Assembly: GCF_003574315.2 (NCBI RefSeq) | Contig: NZ_AP025739.1 | Location: forward strand, 1,302,001 to 1,366,000 | From: Capsulimonas corticalis | Lineage (GTDB): Bacteria; Armatimonadota; Armatimonadia; Armatimonadales; Capsulimonadaceae | Length of the DNA stretch: 64,000 nucleotides | Reading direction: 5' to 3' | Shown: piece after piece, positions 25,073 through 44,418 of the stretch | How positions within the stretch are numbered: the first letter of the stretch is position 1 | How the letters are laid out: the number at the start of each line of letters is the position of its first letter | Program-made: the position numbers and the translations under genes | The notes under the pieces: model-generated | What the model was told of the DNA's origin: nothing | The model's database searches: none | What the model saw: only the letters and a program-made list of their open reading frames with translations

Positions 25073-25135
25073 TCACGTCGCCACACAATTGATCACGTCA
25101 TAGTCATTGACGATACTGATGCACTATTGTATCAT
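25073..25135 (+). promoter_or_regulatory. AraC promoter module 1 (GDSL-RICIN gene)
   Basis: Direct boxes TCACGT at 25073 and 25093 (20 bp apart). The second starts 14 bp before the -35 TTGACG (25107-25112), followed by a 17-bp spacer and -10 TATCAT (25130-25135). Spacing is identical to the modules at 35473, 36482, 37748 and 44356; here the box ends in GT instead of AA. Confidence 0.7.
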
Positions 25136-25223
25136 AAATATCGCAGATCACGTGAACGGGTATCGAATTAAGTTTTAATCGATATAATCGCAATACAAAT
25201 GCAGCGATGAGGCGCATCCATCC

Positions 25224-27149
25224 ATGAAAAGAACACGACTCAAAACCGTCACACGAACGGCTTCCGCGCTACTGGTCAGCCTGCTGATCGGCAAGACCGG
25301 CGCGGCGCAGATCCGCGTGGCGTGTGTCGGCGACAGCATCACCTGGGGCCAGGGCGCTTCCAACAGCGCGACGACCAGTTATGTGGCGCTGCTCCAGCAG
25401 ATGCTTGGCTCGGGATACGCCGTCACCAATTACGGCAACCCGGGAAAGGCGATGATCTCGAACCCGAACCTGGACATCGCCTATGTGAAGACGGCCGAGT
25501 ATACGAACAGCACCAACGCCAACCCGAATATCGTCATCATCCAGCTCGGGACAAACGACGCGCTGGACAATGTCTGGACACAGCTCGGGAACGAGTACGC
25601 GGCGGACGCGCAGGCGCTGATCAACCACTACGCGGCCCTGCCCGCGCATCCCAAGATCTATATCTGCCTGCCCCCCGCGATCTACGGCGTCGGCAACTTA
25701 CGCGCCGTCCACCTGGAAAACGGCGTCATCCCCGCCCTGCGCACCCTGACGGGCGCGAACTTGATCGATAACTACACGCCGACCCGAAACGTCCCCGAGG
25801 ACTTTGTCGACGGCGTTCACCCCAGCGACGCCGGGCATGCCATCCTCGCCAACGACGTGTATCGGGCCATGACCAACGCGGCGCCCATTCCGCCAAGCTT
25901 CGTGGCCGTAGGCCCGGACAATCAAACACGCGTATTGAAGGCCACCGACACCAATGGCTCGATCTCGCTCCAGACGATCGCGACGGACGGCGTGACGGTC
26001 ATCAGCACAAACAACTACGGTCCCTTTCCCGGCTGGCGTGTGACCGCGATGTGCGTCGGGCCGGACAACTGCCCGCACATCCTGTGGACAAACGTCAATC
26101 AAACCGTCAATCTCTGGAAGCTGAGTTCGACGGGAGCGAATCCCGCGATCAGCCAGACCTTCAGCCCAATTACCTCGTTCCTGCCGCGCGACATCAGCGT
26201 CGGCGCGGACAATCTCCCGCATGTGCTCTGGGACGACACCAACAACTCCGAGTTCCTCTGGCGTCTCTCCGCCACGGACACGAACCCGGTGACCAGCGCC
26301 GTCTCGGCCGCGCCTGCCGGATACGCGGACAAGGCCGTCGCCGTCGGCGCGGACAATCTGCCGCATATCCTCTGGGGCAGTTACGACGGCCGCATGCAGC
26401 TCTGGCGCACGAATTCGGACGGAAGCAGCCCCGCTGCCGGCCCCGCTTACGGCCCATTCGCCAGCTTTGTCGCCTCCGATATGGGTATCGGCCCCAACAA
26501 TCAGCCGCAGGTGCTCTGGAAGCACAGCGCCGGGTTCGCCACCCTCTGGTCGCTTCAGTCCGACGGCTCCAACCCCGTCAACTATCAGACCTACACGCCC
26601 GCCGCGCCCTGGCGTCAGGCCGGCCTCGATGTCGGCGGCGACAACCAGCCACGCGTTCTCACCAACAATAACGATGGAAGCGCGACGCTGAAGAAATTCA
26701 CCGCCGCCTTTACCCCTCCCCTCGCCGCCGGAACCTATCGCATCATGGGACGGCAAAGCGGACGCGCCCTGGACGCCGCCGGCCAGAACACCGGCAACGG
26801 AACCCACATCGATCTCTGGGATGATAACGCGGGCGCCAACCAGCGCTGGACCGTCACGCCCGTAACCGGCGGCGCTTACAAAATCGTCGGCCTGCAAAGC
26901 GGACGCCCGCTGGACGTCGCCGGCCAAGCCACGGTCAACGGAACAGGCATCGATCTATGGGATGACAACGGCGGCCTCAACCAGCTCTGGACGATCTCGC
27001 CCACGGACGGCGGCAACTTCGCGATCGTCGGCGTCCAAAGCGGACGCGCTCTCGACGCCCACGGCCAGGGCGCGGTCAACGGAACGCCGATCGATATCTG
27101 GGACTGGGACAGCGGCTTCAATCAGCAATGGAGCTTTGGGACGCCTTAG
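25224..27149 (+). CDS. Secreted SGNH/GDSL esterase with repeat region and RICIN lectin domain
   Basis: 641 residues. Signal peptide about 1-28 (ends GAAQ). The SGNH hydrolase domain (about 30-220) has block I VACVGDSITWGQG (catalytic Ser), block III IQLGTNDA, and block V DGVHPSDAGH (Asp and His). About 225-495 hold roughly six repeats of near 47 residues marked by VGPDN or VGADNLPHVLW, likely a beta-propeller. The C-terminal 140 residues are a ricin-type beta-trefoil with QRW, QLW and QQW motifs, binding carbohydrate. It probably deacetylates polysaccharide outside the cell. Promoter module 1 suggests AraC control. Confidence 0.88.
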   Translation: MKRTRLKTVTRTASALLVSLLIGKTGAAQIRVACVGDSITWGQGASNSATTSYVALLQQMLGSGYAVTNYGNPGKAMISNPNLDIAYVKTAEYTNSTNANPNIVIIQLGTNDALDNVWTQLGNEYAADAQALINHYAALPAHPKIYICLPPAIYGVGNLRAVHLENGVIPALRTLTGANLIDNYTPTRNVPEDFVDGVHPSDAGHAILANDVYRAMTNAAPIPPSFVAVGPDNQTRVLKATDTNGSISLQTIATDGVTVISTNNYGPFPGWRVTAMCVGPDNCPHILWTNVNQTVNLWKLSSTGANPAISQTFSPITSFLPRDISVGADNLPHVLWDDTNNSEFLWRLSATDTNPVTSAVSAAPAGYADKAVAVGADNLPHILWGSYDGRMQLWRTNSDGSSPAAGPAYGPFASFVASDMGIGPNNQPQVLWKHSAGFATLWSLQSDGSNPVNYQTYTPAAPWRQAGLDVGGDNQPRVLTNNNDGSATLKKFTAAFTPPLAAGTYRIMGRQSGRALDAAGQNTGNGTHIDLWDDNAGANQRWTVTPVTGGAYKIVGLQSGRPLDVAGQATVNGTGIDLWDDNGGLNQLWTISPTDGGNFAIVGVQSGRALDAHGQGAVNGTPIDIWDWDSGFNQQWSFGTP

Positions 27150-27160
27150 CGAACGGAAAT

Positions 27161-27310
27161 GCCTGGCGAATGAATTCGCGGCTAAAAGTACGGTCACCCG
27201 CCTGCGCGGGTTCAGAATTTTGCGCCGAAGGCGCTTATCTTAATGCCGTAGGTTCCGAAGTCCGCGAAGGCGGACGGCCGTACTTTTAGGCGCGAATTCA
27301 TTCGCCGGCC
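27161..27310. repeat. 150-bp multi-hairpin element, copy 1
   Basis: It has terminal inverted repeats of about 31 bp (...GGCGAATGAATTCGCGGC, TAAAAGTACG) and three internal hairpins at 27197-27210, 27222-27234 and 27260-27275. It is the reverse complement of 55461-55609 with about a dozen differences; the 27260-27275 stem differs by a compensatory pair swap. It lies between two secreted-enzyme genes and encodes nothing visible. Confidence 0.85.
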
Positions 27311-27361
27311 TTCTTAACGCGCATCACATTACGAACACACTCAAGAGAAATCAGGAGATCA

Positions 27362-29011
27362 ATGAAAACACAACTCAAAGATGCGGTGCGGGTCGGCAAG
27401 ATGATGGTATGCCTCGCGCTCGCGGGGGCCGCCGGAATGGGCGGCGCGCACGCGGGCAGTCCTGTCGGCGATGTCGTCGGCAAGGTGACGGTTGGATACC
27501 AAGGATGGTTCTCATCGGCGGGTGACGGTTCGCCGTCGAACAGCTGGAACCATACGAATTATGAACTCTGGCCCGATGTTCGGGAGTACACGACGACCTA
27601 TCAAACGCCCTACGCCAATCTCGGCAACGGCCAGCCGGCGAAGATGTTCTCGTCGTACGACCAGTCGACGGTCAACGTCCACTTCAACTGGATGGCGCAG
27701 AACGGGATCGACACGGCGGCGCTCCAGCGCTTCGTCAATGAGATCACTCCCGGCAGTACACTCAAGGCGCAGCGGGATGGGGAAGCGACTCGGGTGATGA
27801 ACGCCGCCCAGGCGGCGGGCCGCAAGTTCTACATCATGTACGACACCTCCGGCGGCACGGCGGGCATGGAGACCGACTGGACCAACACGATCGTCAACAC
27901 CCTGCATCTGACGTCGTCCTCGGCGTACGCCAAACAGAACGGCAAGCCCGTCGTCTGCATTTGGGGCGTGGGTTACAAGTTCTTCCCCAACCCCACGGAC
28001 GGCGCGGCGATTATCAACTGGTTCAAGGCGCAGGGCTGCTACGTGATCGCCGGAGTCGCCGGCGACTGGCGCACCGGCAGCGGAGGCGCCAACGACAACA
28101 CGCAGGCCGGCTACGGCGCCGTGTGGCCCCTGTGCGATATGATCATGCCCTGGCAGGTCGGCGGGGGGCCGGATCAGCCCTGGATGACGGCCGATTACTC
28201 CTACTGCAATTCGCATAACATCGACTACCAATCGGACGTCTACCCCGGCTTTTCGTTCCATAACTCCAACGGTTCGACGCAAAACGCGATCCCAAGAAAC
28301 CATGGCGACTTCATGTGGTCGCAGTTCGCGCTCGTCAAGCAGGTCGGCGTCCCAAGCGTCTACATCTCGATGTTCGATGAGATGAACGAAGGCACGGCCA
28401 TCTTCAAATGCGCGGAAGACTCGTCCATGATCCCCACCAACCAGTGGTTCCTGACGCTGGACGCCGACGGCAAGCATGTCTCCTCGGATTACTACCTGCG
28501 CCTCACGAATAACGGCGGCAAGATGATCAAGGGAGCGCTTCCGTACCAGGCGATCAACTCGACCCCATTCACGGTGAACTCCTCCGTAAGCGCCGGGACG
28601 TACCGGATCATCGGGCGACAAAGCGGGCGGGCGCTCGATGTCGCGGCTCAAGGCGCGGCCAACGGCTCGGCGATCGATCTGTGGGATTACAACGCCGGCG
28701 GCAACCAGCAATGGGTGATCACGCCGGTCAGCGGCGGTTATAAGATTATCGGCGCACAGAGCGGCCGCGCGCTCGACGCCGCCGGGCAAGGGACCGCGAA
28801 TGGAACCGCGATCAACCTCTGGGATTATAACGGCGGCGGCAACCAGGTCTGGACCATCTCCCCCACCGACAGCGGCTACTTCAAAATCATCGGCGCACAA
28901 AGCGGCCGCGCGCTCGACGCCCACGCCCAGCTCACCGCCAACGGCACCGCCATCGACCTCTGGGACTGGGACGGCGGCCTGAATCAGCAATGGAGCATCG
29001 GGGCGCCGTAG
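27362..29011 (+). CDS. Secreted GH71/GH99-like protein with RICIN domain
   Basis: 549 residues. AGGAG precedes ATG 27362. Signal peptide about 1-31. The catalytic-type region (32-400) starts GKVTVGYQGWFSSAGDGSP and has VNVHFNWMAQNGIDTAALQRF, KFYIMYDTSGG, VVCIWGVGYKF, YVIAGVAGDWR, DMIMPWQVGG and MFDEMNEGTAIFKC. This is the pattern of GH71/GH99-like TIM barrels, whose acids lie near DEMNE; linkage specificity is not known. About 405-549 are a ricin beta-trefoil with three QxW motifs (QQW, QVW, QQW). It follows the GDSL-RICIN gene, separated by the hairpin element, and may be co-regulated. Confidence 0.82.
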   Translation: MKTQLKDAVRVGKMMVCLALAGAAGMGGAHAGSPVGDVVGKVTVGYQGWFSSAGDGSPSNSWNHTNYELWPDVREYTTTYQTPYANLGNGQPAKMFSSYDQSTVNVHFNWMAQNGIDTAALQRFVNEITPGSTLKAQRDGEATRVMNAAQAAGRKFYIMYDTSGGTAGMETDWTNTIVNTLHLTSSSAYAKQNGKPVVCIWGVGYKFFPNPTDGAAIINWFKAQGCYVIAGVAGDWRTGSGGANDNTQAGYGAVWPLCDMIMPWQVGGGPDQPWMTADYSYCNSHNIDYQSDVYPGFSFHNSNGSTQNAIPRNHGDFMWSQFALVKQVGVPSVYISMFDEMNEGTAIFKCAEDSSMIPTNQWFLTLDADGKHVSSDYYLRLTNNGGKMIKGALPYQAINSTPFTVNSSVSAGTYRIIGRQSGRALDVAAQGAANGSAIDLWDYNAGGNQQWVITPVSGGYKIIGAQSGRALDAAGQGTANGTAINLWDYNGGGNQVWTISPTDSGYFKIIGAQSGRALDAHAQLTANGTAIDLWDWDGGLNQQWSIGAP

Positions 29012-29554: not shown

Positions 29555-31765
29555 ATGACAACATCAATGAAGACATTCACTCAGCTTCTATGCCTCCCCA
29601 TGGTCGCCGGCGCGCTTGCCGGCGCGGCGAATTCGGCGCACGGGGCCGTCGGCGCGACGACGCCTTTTTCGAGTTACGAAGCTGAGGCGGGGACGGTCGG
29701 CGGCGGCGCTTCCGTGGTCTCGCTGACGTCCGCGCCGACGACGCAGTATTCGAGCCCGACGCTGGAGGCGTCCGGACACGCTTACGTTCAGCTGACGGGC
29801 AACGGGCAGTATGTGCAGTGGACGAACAATACCGGCGGGAATATCACGGCGATCAATGTGCGGGCGTGTATCCCCGATTCCTCCGGCGGCGGCGGGATTA
29901 CGGCCACGCTGGACCTTTATGTGAACGGGACGTTTCGACAGGCGATCAATCTGAGCTCGAAGCAGACGTGGCTTTACGAAGGCAATAACAACTATCAGGG
30001 CAACGATCAGAATCCGGCGGACGGCAACCCGCGCGTGTTCTACGACGACGCGCATACGTTCATCTCGGGAGCCGCGATCCCGGCGGGCGCGACGATCAAG
30101 CTCCAGAAGGATTCGACGAACACCGCCGCCTTCTACGATATCGATGTCGTCGATGTGGAGAATCCGCCGGCGGCGATCGCACAGCCGGCCAACTCGCTCA
30201 GCATCACCAGCTATGGCGCGACGGCGAATAACAGCGGCGTGGATAACTCCACGGCGATCCAGAACTGTATCAATGACGCGCAGTCGCAGGGCAAAAGCGT
30301 ATGGATCCCCTCGGGTACGTTCTATGTGAAGACACAGGGCGGCATCAACGCGAACGGCGTCACCATCCAGGGCGCGGGCATGTGGTACAGCACGATCTAC
30401 CGCAATATGAACCTCCCCAACGCCAACCCGCTGGGAGCGATCTTCAACGTCACATCCTGCACGGTTCGTAACTTCGCGCTCGATTCCAACGCGCCCAGCC
30501 GCGCCACCGTCGATGGCTGTGGCGGCGGCATGGACACCACGGGAACGAACTGGCTGGCGGAAAATATCTGGACCCAGCACACGATGTCCGGCTTCTGGGC
30601 GTCGGGGACTGGCGGCACGGTGCGCAACTGCCGGCTAACAAGCATCTGGGCCGACGGCTGCAACCTCAACAATGTCGCGCTGACGGGAACGGTCGGCAAC
30701 AACCTGACCGCGACGAATAACTTCATTCGTGGAACCGGCGACGACGGCATGGCGATCAACTCCGTCAACTACAACGGCAGCACCAACTACACCCCGATGT
30801 CGGGCGCGACCATGACCAACAACACCATTGTCGCAATCTGGGGCGGCAAGTGCCTGGGGATCTACGGCGGCGGCGGGCATCAGGTGATGTATAACTACAT
30901 GAGCGACACCGCGCGCTACATCGGCCTAGGCGTCGGCAAGTTCGGCGTGAACGGCTCGGACCTTACCTCCGGAACCGTCATGTTCAACACCGTCGTGCGC
31001 TGCGGCGGCAACGGCTTCAACCAGGGACAGCCGGCGCTGCACATCGGCAACGGCGGAGACGGACAGGGTGTCGGCGTTGTCTCCGGCGTCACGGTCAGCA
31101 ACAACACGGTGCAGAACGCGCTGTACAACGGCGTCGGCTTCTCCACCAGCTCGAACATCACCTTCGAGAGCAACACCATCACCGCGCCGGCGCTGGACGG
31201 CATCGTCATCGCGCCGCCGTTCTACCCGGCCCCGTCGGGTTCGGCGTCGATCCGCTTCAACACGGTGAACGCCTTGAATTCGGGCCACACACAGTTCGTC
31301 AATAACTCCAGCGGGTACACGGCCACGGTCGTTCAGAACACCTGGCAGGGAACCCACAAGCTGGTTCCCGGGACGAACGTTTCTTTTCAGGCGGTCGGCG
31401 CCAACAGCAAGTACGTCACGGCTCCCAGCGCCACCAGCCCGCTGATCGCCAGCGCGTCCACCGTGGGAAGCGGACAAACGTTCACGGTCATCGACGCCGG
31501 TAACGGCAACATCGGCCTCAAGGCGCTTGCGAACAGCGAATATGTCTGCGCCGACAATTCGGGAACCAGCCCCCTCATCGCCAACCGCACGGCGGTCGGC
31601 CCCTGGGAAACGTTCACGGAGGTCGACGCCGGCAATGGCAACATCGCCCTGCGAGCCCTGAACGACAGCGAATACGTCTGCGCCGACAACGCCGGCGCCA
31701 ACCCGCTGATCGCCAACCGCGCCGCCTTCGGCGGCTGGGAAACGTTCGCGGTGGCGACGCACTAG
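29555..31765 (+). CDS. GH87-like alpha-1,3-glucanase (mycodextranase) with CBM6-like and fascin-like domains
   Basis: 736 residues from ATG 29555. Signal peptide about 1-31 (ends SAHG). A CBM6/35-like module starts SYEAEAGTVGGGA (about 38-205). The right-handed beta-helix (about 215-600) begins ITSYGATANNSGVDNSTAIQ with VWIPSGTFYV and GAGMWYSTI, and has SIWADGCNLNNV and RGTGDDGMAINS, matching the conserved acidic cluster of GH87 enzymes that cut alpha-1,3-glucan. The C-terminal 130 residues are fascin-like repeats (NSKYVTAPSATSPL, NSEYVCADNSGTSPL, NSEYVCADNAGANPL). It probably attacks fungal or dental-type glucans outside the cell. Confidence 0.85.
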   Translation: MTTSMKTFTQLLCLPMVAGALAGAANSAHGAVGATTPFSSYEAEAGTVGGGASVVSLTSAPTTQYSSPTLEASGHAYVQLTGNGQYVQWTNNTGGNITAINVRACIPDSSGGGGITATLDLYVNGTFRQAINLSSKQTWLYEGNNNYQGNDQNPADGNPRVFYDDAHTFISGAAIPAGATIKLQKDSTNTAAFYDIDVVDVENPPAAIAQPANSLSITSYGATANNSGVDNSTAIQNCINDAQSQGKSVWIPSGTFYVKTQGGINANGVTIQGAGMWYSTIYRNMNLPNANPLGAIFNVTSCTVRNFALDSNAPSRATVDGCGGGMDTTGTNWLAENIWTQHTMSGFWASGTGGTVRNCRLTSIWADGCNLNNVALTGTVGNNLTATNNFIRGTGDDGMAINSVNYNGSTNYTPMSGATMTNNTIVAIWGGKCLGIYGGGGHQVMYNYMSDTARYIGLGVGKFGVNGSDLTSGTVMFNTVVRCGGNGFNQGQPALHIGNGGDGQGVGVVSGVTVSNNTVQNALYNGVGFSTSSNITFESNTITAPALDGIVIAPPFYPAPSGSASIRFNTVNALNSGHTQFVNNSSGYTATVVQNTWQGTHKLVPGTNVSFQAVGANSKYVTAPSATSPLIASASTVGSGQTFTVIDAGNGNIGLKALANSEYVCADNSGTSPLIANRTAVGPWETFTEVDAGNGNIALRALNDSEYVCADNAGANPLIANRAAFGGWETFAVATH

Positions 31766-31790
31766 CGGCCCTCACAGGTCCATCCACAAT

Positions 31791-31837
31791 AAGATGCCCC
31801 CCGGCCCCCACTGGGGGCGCCGGGGGGCATCTTATTT
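31791..31837. terminator. Bidirectional terminator between convergent genes
   Basis: Stem AAGATGCCCCCCGGC pairs with its complement at 31819-31833 around a GC-rich loop with a further CCCCA/TGGGG stem, followed by ATTT on the plus strand and ATTGTGG on the minus. It lies between the GH87 and prepilin genes, which converge. Confidence 0.7.
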
Positions 31838-32681
31838 AGATCGGGCTAAACGTCGCCGAGAAGTGCTGATTTCCGCTGGTCAGCGCATCGGTTCCGGAGG
31901 CGTTGCCGCCCGTGCCGCCGCCCCAGTTGTAGAGGCAGCCGTCCTGAAGGCAGCTTGCGGCGGTGGTTCCGGCGGGAATGGAGCCCGCGTTGTTGCCGCC
32001 GGGCGTTCCGCCGGAGGAGACGGCGGTGGGGCGCTGAAATTTGACGTGGCCGTCGGAGAATAGGTAATTCGCGCCGTCGGTGTGGCGGCCCGTGCGGCTC
32101 TTATCGTAGAGCGAATCGTAGGGGCGTCCGCCGATCGGACCGGTGTCGTAGAGCGCCCACGGGTTGGGGATGTAGCCGCCGCCGCCATCGCCGCCGTTCC
32201 CGGAGACCGAGTAGTCGTTGCCGGAGGTGACGGGATCGGTGACATCGCCGACCACGCCGATCACTTCGAAATACATGACGGTGGACGCCGGAGCATTCAA
32301 CGAGGCGACCGTGCCGGAGGCCGGTGTCAGCAGCGAGCTGAGGTTGGAGTTGTAGCCGTAGCTGATCGGCACGCGGGCGTCCGGCGATGTCGTCGGGTCG
32401 TCCGGACACTTCATCATGCCGACGCTCTTGATATACGGCATCACGCGGCTCGCCCAGCCGTGCCCGCCCGCGCCGTTGTCGGACGCCATAAACGTCTCGT
32501 CGTTGTCCTGCACGTATTGCAAGACGGACAGGCCCAGCTGCTTCATATTACTAGCGCAACTGATCTGACGGGCCTTTTCCCGCGCTTTGGCGAAGACCGG
32601 GAAGAGAATTGCGGCGAGAATCGCAATGATTGCGATGACGACGAGTAGCTCGATCAGTGTAAATCCATGCTGGCGTTTCAT
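31836..32681 (-). CDS. DUF1559 prepilin-like protein 1
   Basis: 281 residues from ATG 32681, with AAAGGGGGCG upstream. [18 protein letters not shown] is a type IV prepilin/type II secretion pseudopilin leader: the peptidase PilD cuts before Phe and methylates it. [20 protein letters not shown] follows, and near the end [17 protein letters not shown] carries the H-X9-DG motif of DUF1559 proteins, abundant in Planctomycetes and Armatimonadota. It probably assembles into, or is displayed with, a pseudopilus. An 18-bp inverted repeat, TTGTGA-6 nt-TCACAA, lies upstream, unlike the spaced module of its two paralogues. Confidence 0.92.
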
Positions 32682-32719
32682 AAAATATCGCCCCCTTTTG
32701 ATAACGGAATGATGGGTGG

Positions 32720-32737: not shown

Positions 32738-32797
32738 CGATGCAAATGATGAGACAATGCGCTCACACCACTATCATATCCTATAGGGGAATATGGG

Positions 32798-35245
32798 TCA
32801 ATATGGATCATGTGACCCGGTTATGTGCTCAAGTGATCGCGAAACTGAAATTTGCGTCCGCGAGCGCGGAGCGGGAGAAGCCGCCTCCGCGCTCGCCCGC
32901 AGTCGATCCAGCCTGAGCGCAATTCGGACGCTCTTGCCGGCGCGCAGCGGAACGATGCGCGCGATCCGTCCCAGCGGCGATACGCGGAACTTCGGCGCTC
33001 CCGAAATCGCCTGGATCCCGCCCCGGTCGATCAAAGTCAGATCCTGATCGATATCGGACTTCAGCACGCAGGTCACCGCCGCGCCGTCCGCATCCCAGCG
33101 TAAACTTTGAATCGTGACGCGGTTTCGGCCTTTGACGCCCGAAATCTCGCCCTGATCGAGAGTCTCCGGCAGCGCCGGCAGCAGCTCTAGCACGCCGGGC
33201 CGTGAGGAGATGAGCATCTCCATCATGACGGTCGGGACGGCGTTACACACATCGGTGCAGAAGACATCGTGATTGGCGTTATGCGATGTCGCCAGGCTGT
33301 CAAAATAGAAGCCGTTTTGGAACAGATGCAGCAGCTTGCTGTTGACCGCCCGATCGTTGTTGACGGCCGCCGCGATCAGCGCGCTGTGCAGATAGCCATG
33401 GCCCGTACCGTAATCGAACTGATCCTTCTTCGCGAGTGTCGTGGACGCCGCCTGGAACATCGCCGGCTCCGTTTCCGCCGTGATCTCCCGGAACGGCCAA
33501 ACGCCGAGCAGCTGGCTGGAGTGGCGATGGTTGTAGTTATCCTGCAAGCCCGGCCACGACCATTCCTGCAAGGCGCCGTCGACATTCACCAGATACGGCG
33601 GCAGCTTATTCAGGATCTTCGTCCACCGCTCCCGCCCCTGCCCCGCTCCCTGCTCCACATGCAAAATTCCGCATGTCTCGACTAGCGCCGTCAGCGCGAA
33701 CTTCGCCCCCGCGATATCGAACGAGGAGTTGTTCAGCAGCGAGACATGGACATTGGCCGGCTGGTTTTCCGGAGACACGGATCCGGCCAGAATGTACTTT
33801 CCGTTGGCGTCGGTCTTGGTCAGGAAGTCCTCATAGAAGTCTCCCATCTCTTTAAGCAGGGGATAGAGGCGGGTTCTGAGAAACCGGGAGTCGCCCGTCA
33901 CCAGGTAGTGCTCCCAGAACGGGTACAGCAGCCATCCCTCCTCGCCCGTCGCGTATTGATAGGGATAGTAGTCGCTGATTCCCGCCATAAGGCCGGCGCC
34001 CGCCGCCGGCGTGTTTCCGGCGGCCACCATGCCCCGGCAGCCGAGCAGCTTGCGCGCGTTGGTTTCGAAGTCGGGCCGCCAGGATTCGTTGATCTTGAAG
34101 TAGCCTTCCATCGCCTCCGGCATGTCGCCGATATTGCCGCCGCTGACCTGGAAATTGAGATTGGCGTCCAGGTGATAAAATCCGCCCCAGCCCGCGCCGC
34201 AGTCGGCGGTCCAGATACCGAGCAGATCGGGCGGCGTCTGATCGCTGCTCGCGCAGAGATAGTAATATCGGCCCGCGTCGAAGATCCGCTCCCAGAGCGC
34301 CCTGGTCGCGGACGGCGAGGTCTTCTGGAGGGCCAGCTGCTCCTCATTCGTTCGCGCGCGGTCGGCGGGGCTGGCGTTCAGATCGAGGCGGACCCGATCG
34401 TAAATCGCCTGATGGACCGCTTTGTGCCGCTCCAGAAGCGTCTGATAATCGGCGGGCAGCGCGGCCAGTTGTTTCTGGATTTCGCGCCGATCCCAATGAG
34501 CTTCGCAGTTCTCGTAGTACTTCGCGGTTCGGGTCAGCAGCAGCACCGAATCGGCGTCCACGATACGAAGCACATTGCCGTCGACGCTTTTGGATCCTCC
34601 CACCGTCACGACGCGGGTCACGCCTTCATATCCGGCGTTGCTCGGGTTGGGCGAATACTTCACTCGCATATTGAGCGTGTCGAGACTCGCGGCGCTGTCG
34701 AACGTCATGTCCGATGGGAATCCCATCTTCGGCTCCGTCGTCAATTGGATCGCGCAGGTAATTTTGTGGCCCTTCGGCGCCGTGAGAGACTGCGCCGTGA
34801 CATTGTCGGGCCGGGAGACGAACGCGCGGCGCGACCAATCGCCGCGCCGATCCGTCCAACGAACGACGATCTCCCCCGTCTGGAAGTTACAGATGCGGGA
34901 ATAGCTGCGGATCGCGCCGTCTTCCGGTGTTGAGATCCGCATCTCATATCCCGGATGACGGTTCCCCTCCCCGCCCCCTTGATAATGCGCCGATTTCACG
35001 GCCAGATCATTGGCGGCGGTGAAATTCCCGGCGACGCAAAAGTCCTTGATCGCCGCCAGGTCGGCGGCGCTCACCTGGGCGAACGACCGGTCACTCGTCT
35101 TGGCGAGATTAAAGCCCCGGTCGTTATAGACAACGGTTTCTTGCAGCGGATTGCCGAAGACCATGATTCCCATCTTGCCGTTGCCGGAAAGAAACGCGTT
35201 TTCCCAGTCGCCATACTCCACCGGATAACGATGCGAAATCCCCAT
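32798..35245 (-). CDS. GH95-like alpha-L-fucosidase, signal peptide split off by frameshift
   Basis: 815 residues from ATG 35245. GH95 features: GNGKMGIMVFGNPLQETVVYNDR near the N-terminus, the (alpha/alpha)6 barrel with ALWERIFDAGRYYYLCASSD, PPDLLGIW, GGFYHLDANLNFQVSG, GSVSPENQP, and late HRHSSQLLGVWP. GH95 enzymes invert and release alpha-1,2-linked fucose or related sugars. The frame upstream encodes TFAFALILAALALPCFAGG, a signal peptide without any start codon; its ATG (35358) is out of frame because of an 11-bp tandem duplication. The deposited frame therefore starts inside the mature protein. Promoter module at 35473-35535. Confidence 0.85.
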   Translation of the reverse strand: MGISHRYPVEYGDWENAFLSGNGKMGIMVFGNPLQETVVYNDRGFNLAKTSDRSFAQVSAADLAAIKDFCVAGNFTAANDLAVKSAHYQGGGEGNRHPGYEMRISTPEDGAIRSYSRICNFQTGEIVVRWTDRRGDWSRRAFVSRPDNVTAQSLTAPKGHKITCAIQLTTEPKMGFPSDMTFDSAASLDTLNMRVKYSPNPSNAGYEGVTRVVTVGGSKSVDGNVLRIVDADSVLLLTRTAKYYENCEAHWDRREIQKQLAALPADYQTLLERHKAVHQAIYDRVRLDLNASPADRARTNEEQLALQKTSPSATRALWERIFDAGRYYYLCASSDQTPPDLLGIWTADCGAGWGGFYHLDANLNFQVSGGNIGDMPEAMEGYFKINESWRPDFETNARKLLGCRGMVAAGNTPAAGAGLMAGISDYYPYQYATGEEGWLLYPFWEHYLVTGDSRFLRTRLYPLLKEMGDFYEDFLTKTDANGKYILAGSVSPENQPANVHVSLLNNSSFDIAGAKFALTALVETCGILHVEQGAGQGRERWTKILNKLPPYLVNVDGALQEWSWPGLQDNYNHRHSSQLLGVWPFREITAETEPAMFQAASTTLAKKDQFDYGTGHGYLHSALIAAAVNNDRAVNSKLLHLFQNGFYFDSLATSHNANHDVFCTDVCNAVPTVMMEMLISSRPGVLELLPALPETLDQGEISGVKGRNRVTIQSLRWDADGAAVTCVLKSDIDQDLTLIDRGGIQAISGAPKFRVSPLGRIARIVPLRAGKSVRIALRLDRLRASAEAASPAPRSRTQISVSRSLEHITGSHDPY

Positions 35246-35472: not shown

Positions 35473-35535
35473 ATTATAGGGTAAAGATCGGCCACGGTCA
35501 ACCTCCGTATTGTGATTTCTCCTGTGAATTTGTGA
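35473..35535 (-). promoter_or_regulatory. AraC promoter module 2 (GH95 gene)
   Basis: Minus-strand TCACAA boxes begin at 35535 and 35515 (20 bp apart). The second is 14 bp before -35 TTGACC (35501-35496), then 17 bp, then -10 TATAAT (35478-35473). Geometry is identical to the other modules. It points toward the GH95 start at 35358. Confidence 0.75.
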
Positions 35536-35592: not shown

Positions 35593-35613
35593 CCGTGCGG
35601 CGATCCAAAACGC

Positions 35614-36402
35614 CTATTTGTACTTGTTGGCGGCGTTCTGCAAAATGTTCAGACAGTTGTCCAGACCGGAGCCGGTGTAGTTCAGGCCACGGCGGTTCCA
35701 CATATTGACGGCGCCCGCGCCGCCCATGCTGGGGTTCCCGGCGCTGTCCGCGACGTTGCTGATTGTCTGGAAGGGCAGCAGCGCCTTCACATGACCGTCG
35801 GAGAACAAGATATTCGCATGGCCGGTATGACCAAAAAACAGCGTGGGGTTATTGCCGCCGATGTTATCGGGCATATGCGAGTCGCGCCAGTAATTTCCCG
35901 TAATCCGCAGATCCGTGTTGCTGGAGTTGCTCTCAAACACGGCGATGGTGTTCGACGGCGCGTCGAAGTCCGCCAGGGTCGGCCCGGCAAACCCGCGTTG
36001 TCCGAACGCGCCCAGGCTTCCGTCGTTGTCCGTGTTGACGTTGTAGGAAACACGGCTCTTTTTGTCGACATCGTCGTCGTTCATCGATGTGGAAGACAAA
36101 GAGTTGGACGGGCAGGTGAATACGCCGTAACTCTTGATATACGGCTGAAGCAAGTTCTCCCAGTTCGGACCGAAGTTGTCCTGATTGTTCGGACTCATGC
36201 GTCCGGAAGGCATGGTCTCATCGTTGTCCTGGGCGTACTGCATAATGCCCAGGCCGATCTGCTTCAAATTGCTGGCGCAGCTGGTCTGGCGGGCCTTTTC
36301 GCGCGCCTTGGCGAAAACGGGAAAGAGAATAGCGGCAAGAATCGCGATAATAGCGATGACAACGAGTAGTTCGATCAGAGTGAAAGCGGAATTTCGCTTC
36401 AT
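35614..36402 (-). CDS. DUF1559 prepilin-like protein 2
   Basis: 262 residues from ATG 36402. [18 protein letters not shown] is the prepilin leader and helix, then [20 protein letters not shown] and YAQDNDET. The end has [17 protein letters not shown], the DUF1559 H-X9-DG motif. It is a likely substrate of prepilin peptidase, inserted in the inner membrane and displayed on a pseudopilus. Its promoter is AraC module 3 (36482-36544), so it appears co-regulated with GH95 and GH130. It is followed by a strong terminator and so is probably monocistronic. Confidence 0.93.
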
Positions 36403-36481: not shown

Positions 36482-36544
36482 ATTATAGAAGGGCGCGTGA
36501 GAACGGTCAAGGTGGCAATTGTGATATTTAGTATTATTTTGTGA
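36482..36544 (-). promoter_or_regulatory. AraC promoter module 3 (prepilin 2)
   Basis: Minus-strand TCACAA at 36544 and TCACAATTGCC at 36524, 20 bp apart; 14 bp from the second box to -35 TTGACC (36510-36505); 17-bp spacer; -10 TATAAT (36487-36482). It directs transcription of the prepilin gene at 36402. Confidence 0.78.
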
Positions 36545-36551
36545 TGTCGTC

Positions 36552-37568
36552 TTACTCGATGGTATTTCGCTGAGGAGGAAGCGCATCATGGAGGAAGATC
36601 TGTGAGAGGGGCAGGAAGCCGCGCTGGCGGAACTCGCTGGGCGTCATCTGCGTAACCTGACGGAAGGCGTGGACGAAGTTGGAGTATTCGGTATAGCCGA
36701 GCTGCGCGGCGATGGTTTTGATCGGCGCATCGGTGTCCTTGAGCAGGAGACAGGCTTTGCGGATGCGCTGCTCCAGGCAGAATTGCCGGGGCGACATGCC
36801 GACTCGGCGCTGAAAGCAGCGCGACAGATGCTCCCGGCTGACCCCCAGGGCGCGCGCGACATCCTGCACCGAGATATCCTCGCCGGTGCTCATGATCGGG
36901 ATCGCGCGGCGCACCAGATCGATCACGGGGTCCGTCTCTTCCTTCGCCCGTCCGGCCGCCGTCAGCGCCAGCAGCAGCTCCATCACCATCTGCGCGCCGT
37001 CGGCCATATGGATGTTCGTAATCCCATGCCCCAACGCCTCATACGCCAGCAGCCGCTTAATAATCGGCGTGTCGGGCGGCAGGGAGTAAATCGGCCCATA
37101 TTTATTGACCAGCGCCCGGGTCATGGCGTGGGCGGGCAGGCCGTTATAGTTGAACGCCAGAAACCGCCATGGCTCGCGCGTATCCGGGGGATAGAAATAG
37201 GCGGCGTCGGCGTTGTCTTTTTCCACCAGAAACGCCTGCCCTTCCGGAACGGAGTAAATCCCGGAGGCGTCGGAAAAGCCTCCCACACCCGACAGGGTGT
37301 AGCAAAAGTAGCGATAATTTTCAAACTGGCTGTATTTGCAGTCGTTCCGATAAAGCGGGCTGCGCACCACCTGCGCGCTGATATCGATCGGGCGCGGCAT
37401 CATCGGCGCGTCTTCCAGCACGTGAAAATGGGTGCGCCAGAGATGCTGGAAGGTCGTAAAGTGCAGGCGGCCGTGCCGATCGATTTCTTCCGGGGGAACG
37501 AAAAGCGCCGCGATCTGAGGCAGCTCGTCCGGCTTCGGGAGATCGGCGGGAGCAGGGGATTCGTTCAT
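36552..37568 (-). CDS. AraC-family regulator, paralogue 2 of 3
   Basis: 338 residues from ATG 37568 (the frame is open to TTG 37613, inside an operator-like sequence). Same layout as the paralogues at 24027 and 43342: [57 protein letters not shown] in the sensor part; HTHs [18 protein letters not shown] and [20 protein letters not shown] at the end. It lies between two prepilin genes that both carry the TCACAA module, upstream and downstream. It is a strong candidate for the activator of the module; the effector is unknown. Confidence 0.92.
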
Positions 37569-37597
37569 TCGCGTATCGTCTTTCCGGTCGGGCGAAG

Positions 37598-37660
37598 TCA
37601 CAATTGCACTCAAAAGATGATTTCTCTAGCGTTAACGCCGCTTGTCGATCATTGTATCAT
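37598..37660 (+). promoter_or_regulatory. AraC promoter module 4, decayed
   Basis: TCACAATTGCAC at 37598 keeps the distal box, but the position 20 bp on reads TGATTT. A -35-like TTAACG (37632) and -10 TATCAT (37655-37660) keep the 14-bp and 17-bp spacings. The 21-bp distal-box stretch is identical, bar one base, to 44356-44376. It may be a relic of a module like the GH130 one. Confidence 0.55.
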
Positions 37661-37747
37661 AAAAACCCCGAGAATATCGAAACAGGTCTTAACGCGGTAA
37701 TAGCAATTCTAACACTCCTAATCAGCGTCCAAATAATTCGTCTTAAG

Positions 37748-37810
37748 TCACAATCGCCCATGATTTATCACAATTGCGCCATTGACAGTACAATTGCGCT
37801 TCGTTATAAT
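37748..37810 (+). promoter_or_regulatory. AraC promoter module 5 (prepilin 3), consensus promoter
   Basis: TCACAATCGCCC at 37748 and TCACAATTGCGC at 37768; 14 bp to -35 TTGACA (37782-37787), 17 bp, -10 TATAAT (37805-37810). A third related site GTACAATTGCGC sits at 37788, again 20 bp on, inside the spacer. Both promoter hexamers are perfect consensus. Confidence 0.8.
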
Positions 37811-37900
37811 TTGTATGCGATCATCGATCACCTCATTGGCCTATGGCGCATTGCCGATCGCTGCAAATATCAATCTTTTTTTGTCGGGAGACCAAGTACT

Positions 37901-38653
37901 ATGAAACGCAATACAGGGTTTACGTTGATTGAGCTTCTAGTTGTCATCGCTATCATTGCGATTCTAGCCGCGATTTTGTTCCCGGTTTTCGCCAAAGCGC
38001 GCGAAAAGGCGCGTCAGGCGTCCTGCGCCTCGAACGAAAAGCAGATCGCCCTGGGACTGCTCCAATACGCCCAGGACAATGAGGAAACGAACCCGCCCAT
38101 CTATACGGACAGCGGCGGCTGCTGGCAGTATATTATCGATCCTTATGTCAAAAGCACCGGTCTCTACAAGTGCCCCTCCAACCCAAACCCCAACCCGTCG
38201 TACCGGGGGGCCAATGCGAATATCAGCGCCGACTACGCCGGCAATTGGACTTACTACGGCCTGTATGGAGCGTTCGGATACAACAACGCCGTCGGCCCGT
38301 CCCTCGCCAAGATGGACGCGCCCGCGCAGTTCATCACCGTGGCGGAATCGAACGCCAGTAATGGTCAGAACGGGCAGATCACAATCGACCGCACGGACCG
38401 CGCCCCTGGCCCCAGCATGAATGTGCTGTACGCCGGCCATACCGGCCAAACCAACTACCTGTTCGCCGATGGCCACGTCAAATCGCTGCGGCCCTTCGCC
38501 ACCATCGACGCCTCCGCCGGCGGAACCGCCTCCGTGAACTACTGGCGTATCGACGGCAAGCCGTTTACCGACAGCATGGCCGACAGCGGCGGCCTCAACG
38601 AACTGACCGCCGCGAAAGCGGAGCTGAACAGCGCCGTCAACACCTTCCACTAA
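37901..38653 (+). CDS. DUF1559 prepilin-like protein 3
   Basis: 250 residues from ATG 37901, with GGGAG upstream; the frame opens earlier (37604) but that part is promoter [21 protein letters not shown] is the prepilin leader; [20 protein letters not shown] and YAQDNEET follow; [17 protein letters not shown] near the end is the DUF1559 motif. It is transcribed from a consensus promoter with AraC-type boxes. Its role is probably pseudopilus or surface display, co-expressed with the secreted glycan enzymes. Confidence 0.93.
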
Positions 38654-38844
38654 GTGTGCCGGACACTGAGCCTTGCATCAAAATCGCGCCCGAAATGCAT
38701 TCTGCATCCCTTCGAACGCTCCAGAAAGTGATCAACATCACATTCCAGAGATTCCCTTAGGGACGCATTGCGCTTCGAGGCGCGGTTTCCGTTCTCGGGG
38801 CGAGAGAGCATGATCGGTGCGTGATGACAAAGAAAGGTCAACAA

Positions 38845-40794: not shown

Positions 40795-40897
40795 AGCATT
40801 CTTGACGAACCGACGAGCAATTCATACTATTCGCGAGAATTACGATCTGAAATCACGCCGCACGACTGACATCTTCGTCATACCTAAGGAGAAACGC

Positions 40898-43249
40898 ATG
40901 AAGTCCTATCTCAGAGTGATCGGCGCAGCCGCCGCGCTCTCCGCGACGCAAACCGCGGCGTTCGCCGCCACGTACAACGTACGAAACGCTCCGTATAACG
41001 CCACGGGAAACGGGTCCACGGATGACCGGGCGGCCATTCAGGCCGCGATCAACGCCGCCGCCAGCGCCGGTCCGAACAACACCGTCTATATTCCCGCCGG
41101 AACCTACGCGCTGAACAGCAGCGCGGCGACAAGCTGGCAGACGTTCTACATTCCGTCCAATGCGAGCGGCCTGACCATCCTGGGCGACGGCTCCAGCACG
41201 CTGCTTCTCTCCAACGGCGGCAACCGCGAGATTTTCTATTTAGATCATTGCGCCAATTGCAATTTTCAGAACTTCAATCTCGACCAGAAAGTCCCGAACC
41301 TGACACAGGGAACAATCACCGCCGTCAACACCAGCACTAACTCCGTCACCGTCAGCATCGACGCGGGATATCCGGCGCCAAACACCAGCTTTCTCATGGC
41401 GAGCAGCGGCTACACGCCCTCGCTTCTCGTGCTGACAGACCCCAAACGCAGCACTTACACCTGGTCGGAGACCCCGCAAATCAACAGCGTCGCCAGCGCG
41501 GGCAGCGGAAAATGGACCGTCAATCTGGGAAGCACGCCCAGCTCCAGCGACGTGAACAAGAAGTTCTTTATCTGGGGAAGCAATTCCGAGGGCTGGATGT
41601 TCAACATTCAGGGATGCAATAATGTCACGGTCCAGAACGTGAATGACTACTCCGCGCAGGGCTTTTATGTCAATCGGGCGACAGGGACGCTTAGCTTCAC
41701 CAACTTTTATATCGGATCGCCTCCGGGGTCCAATCGGCTCGGGCTGAACTCGGGCATGCAGGGCGTCAGCCGCGCGGATCTGGTGATGACCGGCTGCTCC
41801 ATCCTGCAAAGCAACGACGACGCCGTCAATCAGCTCACCGGAATCGATCATATTCTGGCGAAGCCGGCGCCGTCCACAGTTCAGGTCAGCGGCGGCGGCG
41901 ATTACCAGCCGGGGGACACGGTCTGCGTTTGGGATTACCGCAACCCCGCATCCCCCTATATCCGCGCCACGGCCCATATTGTGAGCACCCACGCCGACGG
42001 CGCGAATTTGGATGTCGTGCTGGACGCCGACGTGCAGATCGTGAACGTCGGCCCACAGCCCACCGGGCCGGGAAATCCGCAGGTTGCCCAGCAGAGCGAC
42101 GGGATCGACCGTCTGTGTGACCTTTCCGGCGGCGCCATCACCTTAACCAACTCGACCTTTGTCTCATCGTTCGCGCGCCCCTTGCTGGTCAAATCCGCCA
42201 AGAGCCTCACCATCACCGGCTGCAACATCTTAGGCGGCGATCAAGACGGCATTGAGGCCGGCATGGAAACGTACTGGGGCGAAGGTCCGCAGTGCAAGAA
42301 CGTGACGATCAAGAATAATACGTTCTCCGACATGGACGGATGCAGCGTGGACATCGGGATCTTCGCCACCAATGGGCCATCGGGACTCTCACACGATCAA
42401 ACCAATATCGACATCGAAAACAATCTGTTCCAGAATGGGGGCCAGCATGCCGTCTGGAACGACGTCATGCCGCGCGGAATCGCTCTCAGATTGGCGAACG
42501 CAAGCGGAGCGACGGTCAAGAATAACACGTTCAAAAACTTCTCGAACGCCAATATCGCCGTATTGACGTCGGACAACGTGAATATTACGGGCAATAACTT
42601 CGTCAATCCGCACCAAACGGCCCTCCCGGTGAATCGCAGTCAAGGGGCGGTCGATCCGGGCGCGGTGATCTGGATCGACAACTCGCAAAATGTCTCGCTG
42701 TCGAACAACGTGGTGTTCAGTCCCGGGTCGCATGAGACGGCGCTCGCCGAGGCGACGGCGAACAACTCCGGAATCAATGGTCTTTCGACCGGCGTCTACG
42801 TCTCCAGCGGCGTTCCGGTCGGCCATCGCATCGCGCTCAAGTCCGCCGTGTCCGGTAAGTACGTCTCCGTCAATCTCTATGGGGGAGATCCCAATCAGAA
42901 CGATCTCCAGGCGGCGTTCGCCGACAGCGCCCAGGGCTGGGAAATGTTTGATGTGGTGGATGCGGGCGGCGGCAATATCGCGCTCAAAAGCGAAGCGACC
43001 GGAAAGTACGTCACCGTGGATTTGAATCAGTCGAGCAAGGTTCTCCGCGCCGACCTCGCAACGGTCATCCAGGCATGGGAGACCATGAATTGGGTCGATC
43101 AAGGCGGCGGCGTCTTCGGGCTCAAGTCCGGCGCGAACGGGCTCTATGTGAGCTGCAACAACGGGGCGGGAAACATCCTGGAGGCGCAATGGGCTCAGAG
43201 CATCAGCACCTGGGAGCAATTCACCTGGGTGGACGCCGGCAAGTTCTGA
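40898..43249 (+). CDS. Secreted beta-helix glycosidase-like protein with fascin-like domain
   Basis: 783 residues from ATG 40898, with AAGGAG 6 nt upstream. Signal peptide about 1-23. The pectate-lyase-type start YNVRNAPYNATGNGSTDDRAAIQAAI and VYIPAGTY is followed by beta-helix coils with ILQSNDDAVNQ (paired Asp), VTIKNNTFSDMDG and VNITGNNFVNPHQ. About 640-783 hold three fascin-like repeats (SGKYVSVNLYGG, TGKYVTVDLNQS, NGLYVSCNNGAG). It shares layout with the preceding gene and is probably a tandem partner acting on the same extracellular glycan. Exact linkage unknown. Confidence 0.78.
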   Translation: MKSYLRVIGAAAALSATQTAAFAATYNVRNAPYNATGNGSTDDRAAIQAAINAAASAGPNNTVYIPAGTYALNSSAATSWQTFYIPSNASGLTILGDGSSTLLLSNGGNREIFYLDHCANCNFQNFNLDQKVPNLTQGTITAVNTSTNSVTVSIDAGYPAPNTSFLMASSGYTPSLLVLTDPKRSTYTWSETPQINSVASAGSGKWTVNLGSTPSSSDVNKKFFIWGSNSEGWMFNIQGCNNVTVQNVNDYSAQGFYVNRATGTLSFTNFYIGSPPGSNRLGLNSGMQGVSRADLVMTGCSILQSNDDAVNQLTGIDHILAKPAPSTVQVSGGGDYQPGDTVCVWDYRNPASPYIRATAHIVSTHADGANLDVVLDADVQIVNVGPQPTGPGNPQVAQQSDGIDRLCDLSGGAITLTNSTFVSSFARPLLVKSAKSLTITGCNILGGDQDGIEAGMETYWGEGPQCKNVTIKNNTFSDMDGCSVDIGIFATNGPSGLSHDQTNIDIENNLFQNGGQHAVWNDVMPRGIALRLANASGATVKNNTFKNFSNANIAVLTSDNVNITGNNFVNPHQTALPVNRSQGAVDPGAVIWIDNSQNVSLSNNVVFSPGSHETALAEATANNSGINGLSTGVYVSSGVPVGHRIALKSAVSGKYVSVNLYGGDPNQNDLQAAFADSAQGWEMFDVVDAGGGNIALKSEATGKYVTVDLNQSSKVLRADLATVIQAWETMNWVDQGGGVFGLKSGANGLYVSCNNGAGNILEAQWAQSISTWEQFTWVDAGKF

Positions 43250-43267
43250 CGCGGCGCCCTGCTTTGG

Positions 43268-43300
43268 GGCCTAAGGAGAAGTTCTGCTTCTCCTTAGGCC
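43268..43300. terminator. Perfect hairpin between convergent genes
   Basis: A 14-bp stem (GGCCTAAGGAGAAG/CTTCTCCTTAGGCC) with loop TTCTG lies between the beta-helix gene and the convergent AraC gene. No T-run, but the position suits a bidirectional 3' end. Confidence 0.65.
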
Positions 43301-43341
43301 ATGGATCTTGCACGCCCAGGTCCAAGCCTCCCCGCTTATCC

Positions 43342-44325
43342 CTATTCTCCGCCCGAAAACAACTGGGCCAGCGGCAGAAAGCCGCGCCGGCGAAACTCGG
43401 TCGGCGTCATATGCGTGACCTGACGAAACGCGTGGACGAAGTTGGAGTATTCAGCGTAACCGAGCTGCGCGGCGATCGTCTTGATTGACGCGTCCGTATC
43501 CTTGAGCAGCAGGCAGGCGCGACGGACCCGCTGCTCCAGGCAAAACTGGCGCGGCGACATGCCGACTCGGCGCTGAAAGCAGCGCGACAGATGCTCCCGA
43601 CTGACGCCCAGAGCGCGCGCGACATCCTGCACCACCGCCTCTTCTCCGTCGCCCATCATCGCGATTGCGCGGCGCACCAGTTCGATCACCGGATCGGTTT
43701 CCTCGCGCGCCCTCCCCACCGTCATCAGCGCCAGCAGCAGCTCCACCACCATCTGCGCGCCGTCCGCGACATGGATATTCGCGATCCCATGCCCGTTGGC
43801 CTCATACCCGAGAAGCCGCTTAATGATCGGAGTATCGGGGGATAACGCGTAAACCGGCCCATATTTCCCCACCACGGCGCGCGTCATCGCATGCGCCGGC
43901 AAACCGTTGAAATCGAACGCCAAAAACGTCCATGGCTCGACCCCATGGGGAGGATAGAAGTACGCAGCCTCAGCGTTATCTTTTTCAAGAAGAAAGGCGT
44001 GTCCTTGTGGAAGAAGATACGTACCGGACGCATCGCTCATCGCCCCCACGCCCGAGAGCGTATAGCAGAAGTAGCGAAAATCCTCATACTGCGTGTATTT
44101 GCAGTCGTTGCGATACCGCGCATCGGTCACGGTCTGGACGCTGACATGGATCGGACGCGGCAGCATCGCAGCGTCCTCCAGCGCATGAAAATAGGTGCTC
44201 CAGAGATACCGGTAGGTAAGGCTGTGGGCGCGGTGGTGACGCTCAATCTCCTCCGAAGAAACGGGGACCGCCACAATGGGAGGAAGCGCATCGGCGGTCG
44301 GCCACGGCGTGAAGGAATCGTTCAT
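43342..44325 (-). CDS. AraC-family regulator, paralogue 3 of 3
   Basis: 327 residues from ATG 44325 (TTG 44346 also possible). Sensor segments [40 protein letters not shown] and PIIKRLLGYEANGHGI match the paralogues at 24027 and 36552; HTHs [18 protein letters not shown] and [20 protein letters not shown]. It is closer to paralogue 2 than to 1. It is divergent from the GH130 gene, whose promoter (44356-44418) carries the paired TCACAA/TCACAT boxes, so it probably controls it and perhaps itself. Confidence 0.92.
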   Translation of the reverse strand: MNDSFTPWPTADALPPIVAVPVSSEEIERHHRAHSLTYRYLWSTYFHALEDAAMLPRPIHVSVQTVTDARYRNDCKYTQYEDFRYFCYTLSGVGAMSDASGTYLLPQGHAFLLEKDNAEAAYFYPPHGVEPWTFLAFDFNGLPAHAMTRAVVGKYGPVYALSPDTPIIKRLLGYEANGHGIANIHVADGAQMVVELLLALMTVGRAREETDPVIELVRRAIAMMGDGEEAVVQDVARALGVSREHLSRCFQRRVGMSPRQFCLEQRVRRACLLLKDTDASIKTIAAQLGYAEYSNFVHAFRQVTHMTPTEFRRRGFLPLAQLFSGGE

Positions 44326-44355
44326 AAACAGGCACGACTTTCCCAACGGAACAAA

Positions 44356-44418
44356 TCACAATCGCACTCAAAAGATCACATCACGGGCGTTGACGCTTCT
44401 GATTAATCATTGTATCAT
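44356..44418 (+). promoter_or_regulatory. AraC promoter module 6 (GH130 gene)
   Basis: TCACAATCGCAC at 44356 and TCACAT at 44376 (20 bp apart), 14 bp to -35 TTGACG (44390-44395), 17 bp, -10 TATCAT (44413-44418). Same geometry as the GDSL module, with which it shares -35 and -10 sequences. Confidence 0.75.

What the first reader, a model, noticed from the sequence alone, without database searches (positions are those of the whole stretch)
25073..44418. A rigid 63-bp AraC-type promoter module shared by glycan enzymes and prepilin genes
Five intact modules (25073-25135 +, 35473-35535 -, 36482-36544 -, 37748-37810 +, 44356-44418 +) and one decayed module (37598-37660 +) share exact geometry: a TCACAA-like box, 20 bp, a second box, 14 bp from that box's first base to the -35, then 17 bp and the -10. 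They precede the GDSL-RICIN, GH95, prepilin 2, prepilin 3 and GH130 genes. Three of the six lie in the divergent promoter of an AraC paralogue. Two direct boxes two helical turns apart, next to the -35, is how AraC-type activators dock. I infer one regulon joining extracellular glycan breakdown with pseudopilin-like surface proteins.
Basis: partly seen in the sequence, partly recalled or inferred. Interest (0 to 1): 0.85.

Follow-up and report, generated by a model that had tools for sequence, protein, structure and literature searches.

The report
AraC regulon of glycanases and pilins
A bacterium of the genus Capsulimonas seems to use one promoter layout, read by a small family of AraC-like regulators, to switch on sugar-polymer-digesting enzymes together with pilin-like surface proteins, which hints that these common but unexplained pilin-like proteins take part in feeding on glycans.

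Summary
One intact module was missed (32773-32836, minus strand, boxes 21 bp apart). The genome holds 18 intact modules by my count; their first genes are carbohydrate proteins (10), DUF1559 prepilins (7) and a sugar-type ABC transporter (1). The likely regulator is a seven-member AraC subfamily. All 11 members found (7 here, 3 in a second Capsulimonas, 1 in another genus of the family) have the module in their divergent promoter, 9 intact and 2 decayed; in both decayed cases the target gene is lost or displaced. The layout is that of dimeric AraC/XylS operators: two direct half-sites two turns apart, the near one beside the -35. 'One regulon' needs amending: base 10 of the far half-site is C (once A) in the window but G at the unlinked sites elsewhere in this genome, and follows one residue (His/Asn or Arg) in the second HTH, so at least two sub-regulons are likely. 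No binding or expression was measured. The architecture is known; I found no description of this regulon or of its pilin link in the library searched.

The parts
25073..25135 (+). intact module, divergent from AraC1, before the GDSL-ricin gene
   Evidence: ortholog in G001
35473..35535 (-). intact module before GH95 (leader about 228 bp)
36482..36544 (-). intact module before prepilin 2
   Evidence: ortholog in G001 C272
37598..37660 (+). decayed module, divergent from AraC2 (box 2 lost)
37748..37810 (+). intact module before prepilin 3
44356..44418 (+). intact module, divergent from AraC3, before GH130
   Evidence: near-identical site before GH130 in G001
24027..25040 (-). AraC1, predicted activator
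36552..37568 (-). AraC2, predicted activator
43342..44325 (-). AraC3, predicted activator
25224..27149 (+). target: GDSL-type esterase/lipase with ricin-type lectin domains
31836..32681 (-). target: prepilin 1 (DUF1559, H-X9-DG)
32798..35245 (-). target: GH95
35614..36402 (-). target: prepilin 2 (DUF1559)
37901..38653 (+). target: prepilin 3 (DUF1559)
44497..45624 (+). target: GH130

Best explanation
The module is the operator-promoter of a lineage-specific subfamily of AraC-type activators, probably sugar-sensing. A dimer binds two direct half-sites: the far one through both helix-turn-helix motifs (TCACA and, starting 9 bp on, [G/C]A[C/T]A), the near one mainly through the first motif (TCACA), which puts the near subunit against the -35 and sigma70-type RNA polymerase (class II activation). 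Each activator gene sits divergently beside a module, and further copies lie at unlinked genes. Targets are glycan enzymes and lectin-like proteins, DUF1559 prepilins and a sugar-type ABC transporter. The family has split in specificity: proteins with His or Asn at one place in the second recognition helix go with C at position 10 (window cluster, 2567060), those with Arg go with G (the unlinked sites). Shown here: the sites, their genes, co-occurrence with the subfamily, conservation, decay where the target is gone. Inferred: binding, activation, sugar effector, the residue-base contact, joint expression of pilins and enzymes.
For: 18 intact sites in the genome, reversed controls 0; their 18 first genes are carbohydrate-related (10), prepilins (7) or ABC transporter (1). 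7 of 7 subfamily AraCs have a module in the divergent promoter; none of the next ten AraC matches lies within 10 kb of a counted site. In 61 genomes the subfamily is in 3; a strict module pattern is in 2 of these, a longer-box pattern in all 3 and once in 16 genomes without it. With the target lost (G001 C499) box 2 has decayed. AraC boxes agree between species at 84 of 90 positions, neighbouring spacers at 77 of 116 (six pairs); 43 of 45 against 41 of 58 for the three pairs on contigs found through the AraC gene. Position 10 follows the HTH2 residue in 10 of 10 readable cases. Half-site spacing of 20-21 bp is close to that of XylS and MekR (21) and MtlR (22), worked out from patterns quoted in PMC4514859 (passages); the same paper says the upstream half-site is the stronger one for MelR and RhaS.
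Against: No binding, footprint or expression data. The position-10 correlation is in essence one split in the AraC tree, so it counts about once. Only 4 of 12 GH92 genes found by one query are under a module. At least 152 DUF1559 matches exist, so the regulon holds few of them. Three of six ortholog partners were found only by the box pattern, which inflates box conservation. The N-terminal AraC_binding domain passed Pfam's cut-off in AraC1 but was not reported for AraC2 or AraC3. A strict pattern also hits 24 unrelated records, mostly Clostridia. Some spacer pairs outside the AraC promoters are alike too (up to 62%), so part of the likeness may be common descent.
Confidence: 0.8

Rival explanations
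1. One global regulon: all seven AraC proteins bind all modules interchangeably.
For: One layout and the same first box at all sites; HTH1 is nearly the same in all seven.
Against: Position 10 differs between window (C or A) and unlinked own-genome sites (G) and follows the HTH2 residue.
Confidence: 0.12
2. The likeness is common descent: promoters copied with genes, without present function as binding sites.
For: 37598 and 44356 share 73% of spacer bases; a few other pairs reach 59-62%.
Against: Mean spacer identity of 105 pairs is 33% against 26% expected and 83% in the boxes; boxes outlast spacers between species; box 2 decays where the target is gone.
Confidence: 0.04
3. Another factor, for instance a CRP-like one (TCACA is half of its palindrome, recalled), binds the boxes; the AraC genes are only neighbours.
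For: The TCACA half-box.
Against: Boxes are direct repeats, with no TGTGA-N6-TCACA palindrome in the aligned sites (by eye); module and subfamily occur in the same 3 of 19 genomes, with one stray hit in the rest.
Confidence: 0.04

Closest known systems
Dimeric AraC/XylS operators: XylS/Pm, MekR, MtlR/PmtlE (patterns as quoted in PMC4514859; passages read)
   Same: Two direct half-sites, each with two short contacts, 21-22 bp start to start, near half-site by the -35; stronger upstream half-site stated there for MelR and RhaS
   Different: Other box letters; mostly 20 bp here; one layout at 18 promoters with seven paralogous regulators
Alpha-mannan gene clusters of Bacteroidota (PMC9213526; listing and start of abstract only)
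   Same: GH76 and GH92 enzymes
   Different: Here scattered promoters with AraC modules and DUF1559 prepilins; SusC/SusD were not searched for
Type IV pilins in cellulose adhesion of Ruminococcus (PMC3672088; passages)
   Same: Pilin-type proteins made along with glycan-degrading enzymes
   Different: There a pilin in a pilus gene cluster; here DUF1559 prepilins, at least 152 matches per genome
Dextran-binding pili-like fibres of Planctomycetes (PMC5394234; passages)
   Same: Pilus-like fibres that bind polysaccharide; R. baltica has 74 DUF1559 genes (PMC2754498; passage)
   Different: Other phylum; the fibre protein was not named in the passages I saw, so a link to DUF1559 is my guess

Membership tests
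AraC/XylS transcription regulators | C-terminal domain with two HTH motifs (PF12833, PF00165) | tested here: met
   Three window proteins above both cut-offs; the profile of the seven matches AraC, SoxS, MarA and Rob chains
AraC/XylS transcription regulators | N-terminal effector-binding/dimerisation domain | tested here: inconclusive
   PF02311 over its cut-off in AraC1 only; the seven align along their length
Dimeric AraC-type class II operator | Two direct half-sites about 21 bp apart | tested here: met
   20 bp at most sites, 21 at some
Dimeric AraC-type class II operator | Near half-site adjoins the -35 | tested here: met
   box 2 start to -35 14 bp, 15 at two sites
Dimeric AraC-type class II operator | Regulator binds there and activates | not testable with these tools
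   needs footprinting and expression work
DUF1559 prepilins | N-terminal prepilin motif with PF07596 and/or H-X9-DG | tested here: met
   prepilins 1 and 3 by Pfam; prepilin 2 by TIGR02532 and the PF07596 genome search
DUF1559 prepilins | Assembly into a filament | not testable with these tools
   no data

The most novel reading that the evidence does not exclude
DUF1559 prepilins are dedicated, sugar-induced surface parts matched to particular glycans: each glycan system switches on its own pilin-like subunit (adhesin or capture fibre) with its enzymes, a counterpart to SusD proteins or binding modules. In this genome several regulator families would be wired to prepilins in this way: this AraC subfamily at 7 of them, LacI-type regulators at others.
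Probability: 0.3. Interest if true: 0.78.

Novelty: new member of a known kind. Interest (0 to 1): 0.55.

Why it matters
DUF1559 prepilins are strongly expanded in some bacteria (74 in R. baltica, PMC2754498, passage; at least 152 matches here) and I know of no accepted role for them. A compact, conserved regulon that couples some of them to glycan enzymes gives a testable function. The seven regulators with matching operators are also a natural set for studying how AraC proteins split specificity: one residue and one base can be exchanged.

Tried and rejected
Matches dropped from the count of 18: genome 960835 (antisense inside a called gene); 5507850 and 7011489 (no gene called after them in a 4-kb stretch); 2250862 (context not examined); 5411651 (it precedes a prepilin, but its boxes are weak, TAACAA and AACACA). 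The one hit in G012 has no gene called just after it and that genome has no subfamily AraC; taken as chance.

A strict pattern over genome contigs gave 25 stretches. One is Capsulimonas sp. RYN_270. The other 24 are mostly Clostridia; eight of them (L090, L094, L099, L102, L104, L106, L108, L109) share one Ruminococcus promoter with more TTCAC repeats. L100, titled Candidatus Zipacnadia, lacks the [G/C]A[C/T]A part; its genes were not looked at. Whether any of the 24 has an AraC neighbour was not tested. The tool says records of the own genome may be left out of that scan.

Auto-repression of the AraC genes: at 5349946 the reverse of box 2 could be the -35 of the AraC gene (by eye); I did not scan the others systematically and claim nothing. 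In one search the calibration on known sites failed (strings too short for the loop); the separation rests on three GH92 loci with a module (41-49 bits) against at most 6.9 for the other 19 upstream regions, four of which were short (84-214 bases), and at most 9.8 in 60 random 400-base sequences. My regular expression missed the G006 AraC, so the tree lacks it; I read it.

Paper searches for Capsulimonas, DUF1559, Armatimonad + prepilin, prepilin + glycoside hydrolase + AraC, Armatimonad + regulon and PF07596 listed nothing that I recognised as this regulon; I judged by titles and abstract starts except where passages are cited. The library lacks most subscription papers.
Full report
Check of the observation. 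The six modules lie at the stated coordinates with the stated spacing. The own genome is one contig of 7,645,051 bases. Its relative of the same genus, G001 (69% complete), has a contig C272 of 3,112 bases with modules at 1711 and 669, which matches JAOQAA010000263.1, Capsulimonas sp. RYN_270, in length and positions. So the genus is Capsulimonas; no call gives the species.

Genome-wide. Four own-genome scans of different strictness give together 18 intact modules; the reversed control was 0 in each. One search, which uses the longer box 1, finds 16 of the 18 (it misses 37748 and 44356) and none of the five matches I rejected. Outside the window the sites are at 441670, 2567060, 2920776, 3743620, 4581952, 5233131, 5349946, 5526112, 5660801, 5764181, 6508208 and 6654668. 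First genes: prepilins at 7 (32773, 36482, 37748, 441670, 2567060, 5233131, 5349946); carbohydrate-related at 10 (GDSL-ricin at 25073, GH95 at 35473, GH130 at 44356, GDSL at 2920776, MGH1-like GH at 3743620, GH76 then GH92 at 5526112, a ricin-domain protein at 5660801, GH38 at 5764181, GH92 at 6508208 and at 6654668); a sugar-type ABC transporter at 4581952. After the prepilin at 2567060 come GH92 and an alpha-galactosidase-like gene. Seven prepilins of 18 is more than expected even if all 336 prepilin candidates were real (binomial P about 2e-5; the gene total of 6,500 is my assumption).

A sigma70-like promoter at 32801-32773 (-) has TCACAT 14 bp upstream of the -35 and TCACTTGAGCACA 21 bp further up. 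The boxes lie in the last 39 bases of the GH95 ORF and the promoter points at prepilin 1. The same site with the same 21-bp spacing precedes the prepilin 1 ortholog in G001 (L127). All three prepilins of the window cluster thus have a module of their own.

The regulator. A search with AraC1 at E up to 1e-10 gives 17 AraC-type matches in the genome. Seven form a subfamily (E below 1e-60); the next ten are at 1e-18 or weaker. All seven have a module in the divergent promoter; none of the ten lies within 10 kb of a counted site (positions compared by eye). In 61 genomes (own plus 60 relatives) the subfamily is found in three: own (7), G001 (3), G006 (1). The strict module pattern is in own and G001 only; the longer-box scan of 19 genomes found 16, 8 and 1 in own, G001 and G006 and 1 in the other 16. 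All 11 subfamily members have a recognisable module, 9 intact and 2 decayed. One decayed module is at AraC2 in the window; the other is at C499 in G001, where the GH gene that follows in the own genome is missing and box 2 reads GCGTG. In G001 the protein closest to AraC2 (support 89/92) still faces GH130 across an intact module. In the window prepilin 3, two beta-helix genes and AraC3 stand between AraC2 and GH130, so the target of AraC2 has been displaced by duplication or insertion here, or the segment was lost in G001.

Conservation. Over six own/G001 pairs the AraC boxes agree at 84 of 90 positions and the spacers upstream of the -35 at 77 of 116 (Fisher P 2.4e-6). Three partners (C361, C365, C391) were found only by the box pattern, so I repeated the count on the three pairs lying on contigs found by the AraC gene: 43 of 45 against 41 of 58 (P 0.0016). 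Bases within a site are not independent, so these values are rough.

Half-site anatomy. I aligned 18 intact sites of standard spacing (14 own, 3 G001, 1 G006); six of the 24 sites listed were left out for other spacing or decay, and 32773 and the later G001 sites were not in that table. Positions 1-6, 10-13 (A11 and A13 each 17 of 18), 21-25, the -35 and the -10 carry the information. Only the far half-site has the second contact; the near one has TCACA alone. From patterns quoted in PMC4514859 (passages) XylS and MekR half-sites start 21 bp apart and MtlR ones 22, and that paper says the upstream half-site is the stronger for MelR and RhaS.

Two sub-regulons. At the AraC-linked modules position 10 is C for AraC1, AraC2 (decayed), AraC3, 2567060, C272 and C290, and G for 3743620, 5764181, 5349946, C499 and G006. 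The residue after NFx in the second recognition helix is His or Asn in the first set (C290 is cut by the contig end) and Arg in the second: 10 of 10 readable. An alignment to a solved E. coli AraC domain puts it at the Arg of YFSRVF; that this place touches bases in MarA is recalled. The eight sites outside the window with no subfamily AraC beside them all have G; the four such sites in the window have C, C, A, C. In G001 sites without a linked AraC in the DNA I saw, C361, C365 and C660 have G, C391 (the prepilin 1 ortholog) C, and C259, before a prepilin, C; that last one may lie apart from the cluster, but the contigs are too short to tell. The tree (midpoint-rooted) groups the His/Asn proteins with support 82/83, so this is one change and not many.

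Results that limit the claim. Of 12 GH92 matches in the own genome (one query, E up to 1e-60) two have a module directly upstream, two are second genes after one, and eight have none within 700 bases. GH92 homologues in G004 and G007, which lack the subfamily, have none. DUF1559 has at least 152 matches, so this regulon covers few.

Wider context. I took 20 module-free prepilin loci (about every seventh of the list, one replaced because it lay close to another, the last dropped) and 20 loci at even steps through the genome (three shifted away from loci already in hand). Up to four neighbouring ORFs were taken from each; in 10 of the 20 prepilin loci my motif did not find the prepilin near the centre, and the ORFs nearest the centre were used. 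Of 74 proteins from prepilin loci 13 are DUF1559 themselves and 8 match LacI-type sugar-binding domains (PF13377, PF00532; the LacI HTH itself in 3). In 73 control proteins these domains are not among the 25 families shown, which include every family with two or more members, so at most 1. Fisher P is 0.0014 if the control has none and 0.011 if it has one. AraC-type HTH is not enriched in this sample (at most 1 member shown for prepilin loci, 2 in the control). This fits, modestly, a habit of placing prepilins beside sugar-responsive regulators.

Reading. A lineage-specific AraC subfamily most likely activates glycan enzymes, prepilins and a transporter through a class II operator. What the prepilins do is open. 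Pilin-type proteins are linked to cellulose adhesion in Ruminococcus (PMC3672088, passages), and pili-like fibres of Planctomycetes bind dextran (PMC5394234, passages). GH92, GH76 and GH38 among the unlinked targets suggest alpha-mannan or N-glycans (family knowledge, recalled). The window also has an alpha-1,3-glucanase-like gene (29600-31765) and other enzymes without a module of their own; whether they are co-transcribed was not shown.

Noticed in passing
window 18286-18579 and 20200-22467: A 97-aa ORF repeats the start of the helicase-like gene at 20200 (name recalled) almost letter for letter, on the other side of the ORF at 18605-20179, as if the 5' end had been duplicated.
   Followed up: no
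L094 4740-4802, L108 939-1001 and six more of L088-L112: Eight Ruminococcus records share one promoter with phased TTCAC/TCACA repeats before TTGACA and TATAAT.
   Followed up: partly
own genome, at least 152 places: Very large expansion of DUF1559 prepilins; in a sample the neighbours are rich in LacI-type domains.
   Followed up: partly
L027 6947-7030: The reverse of box 2 and a TACAAT beside box 1 could form the AraC gene's own promoter, which would give auto-repression (by eye).
   Followed up: no
L053 8061-9313 and L086 1006-1122: In the own genome a prepilin stands between module and GH92; in G001 the module directly precedes GH92, so a prepilin was gained or lost in this operon.
   Followed up: partly
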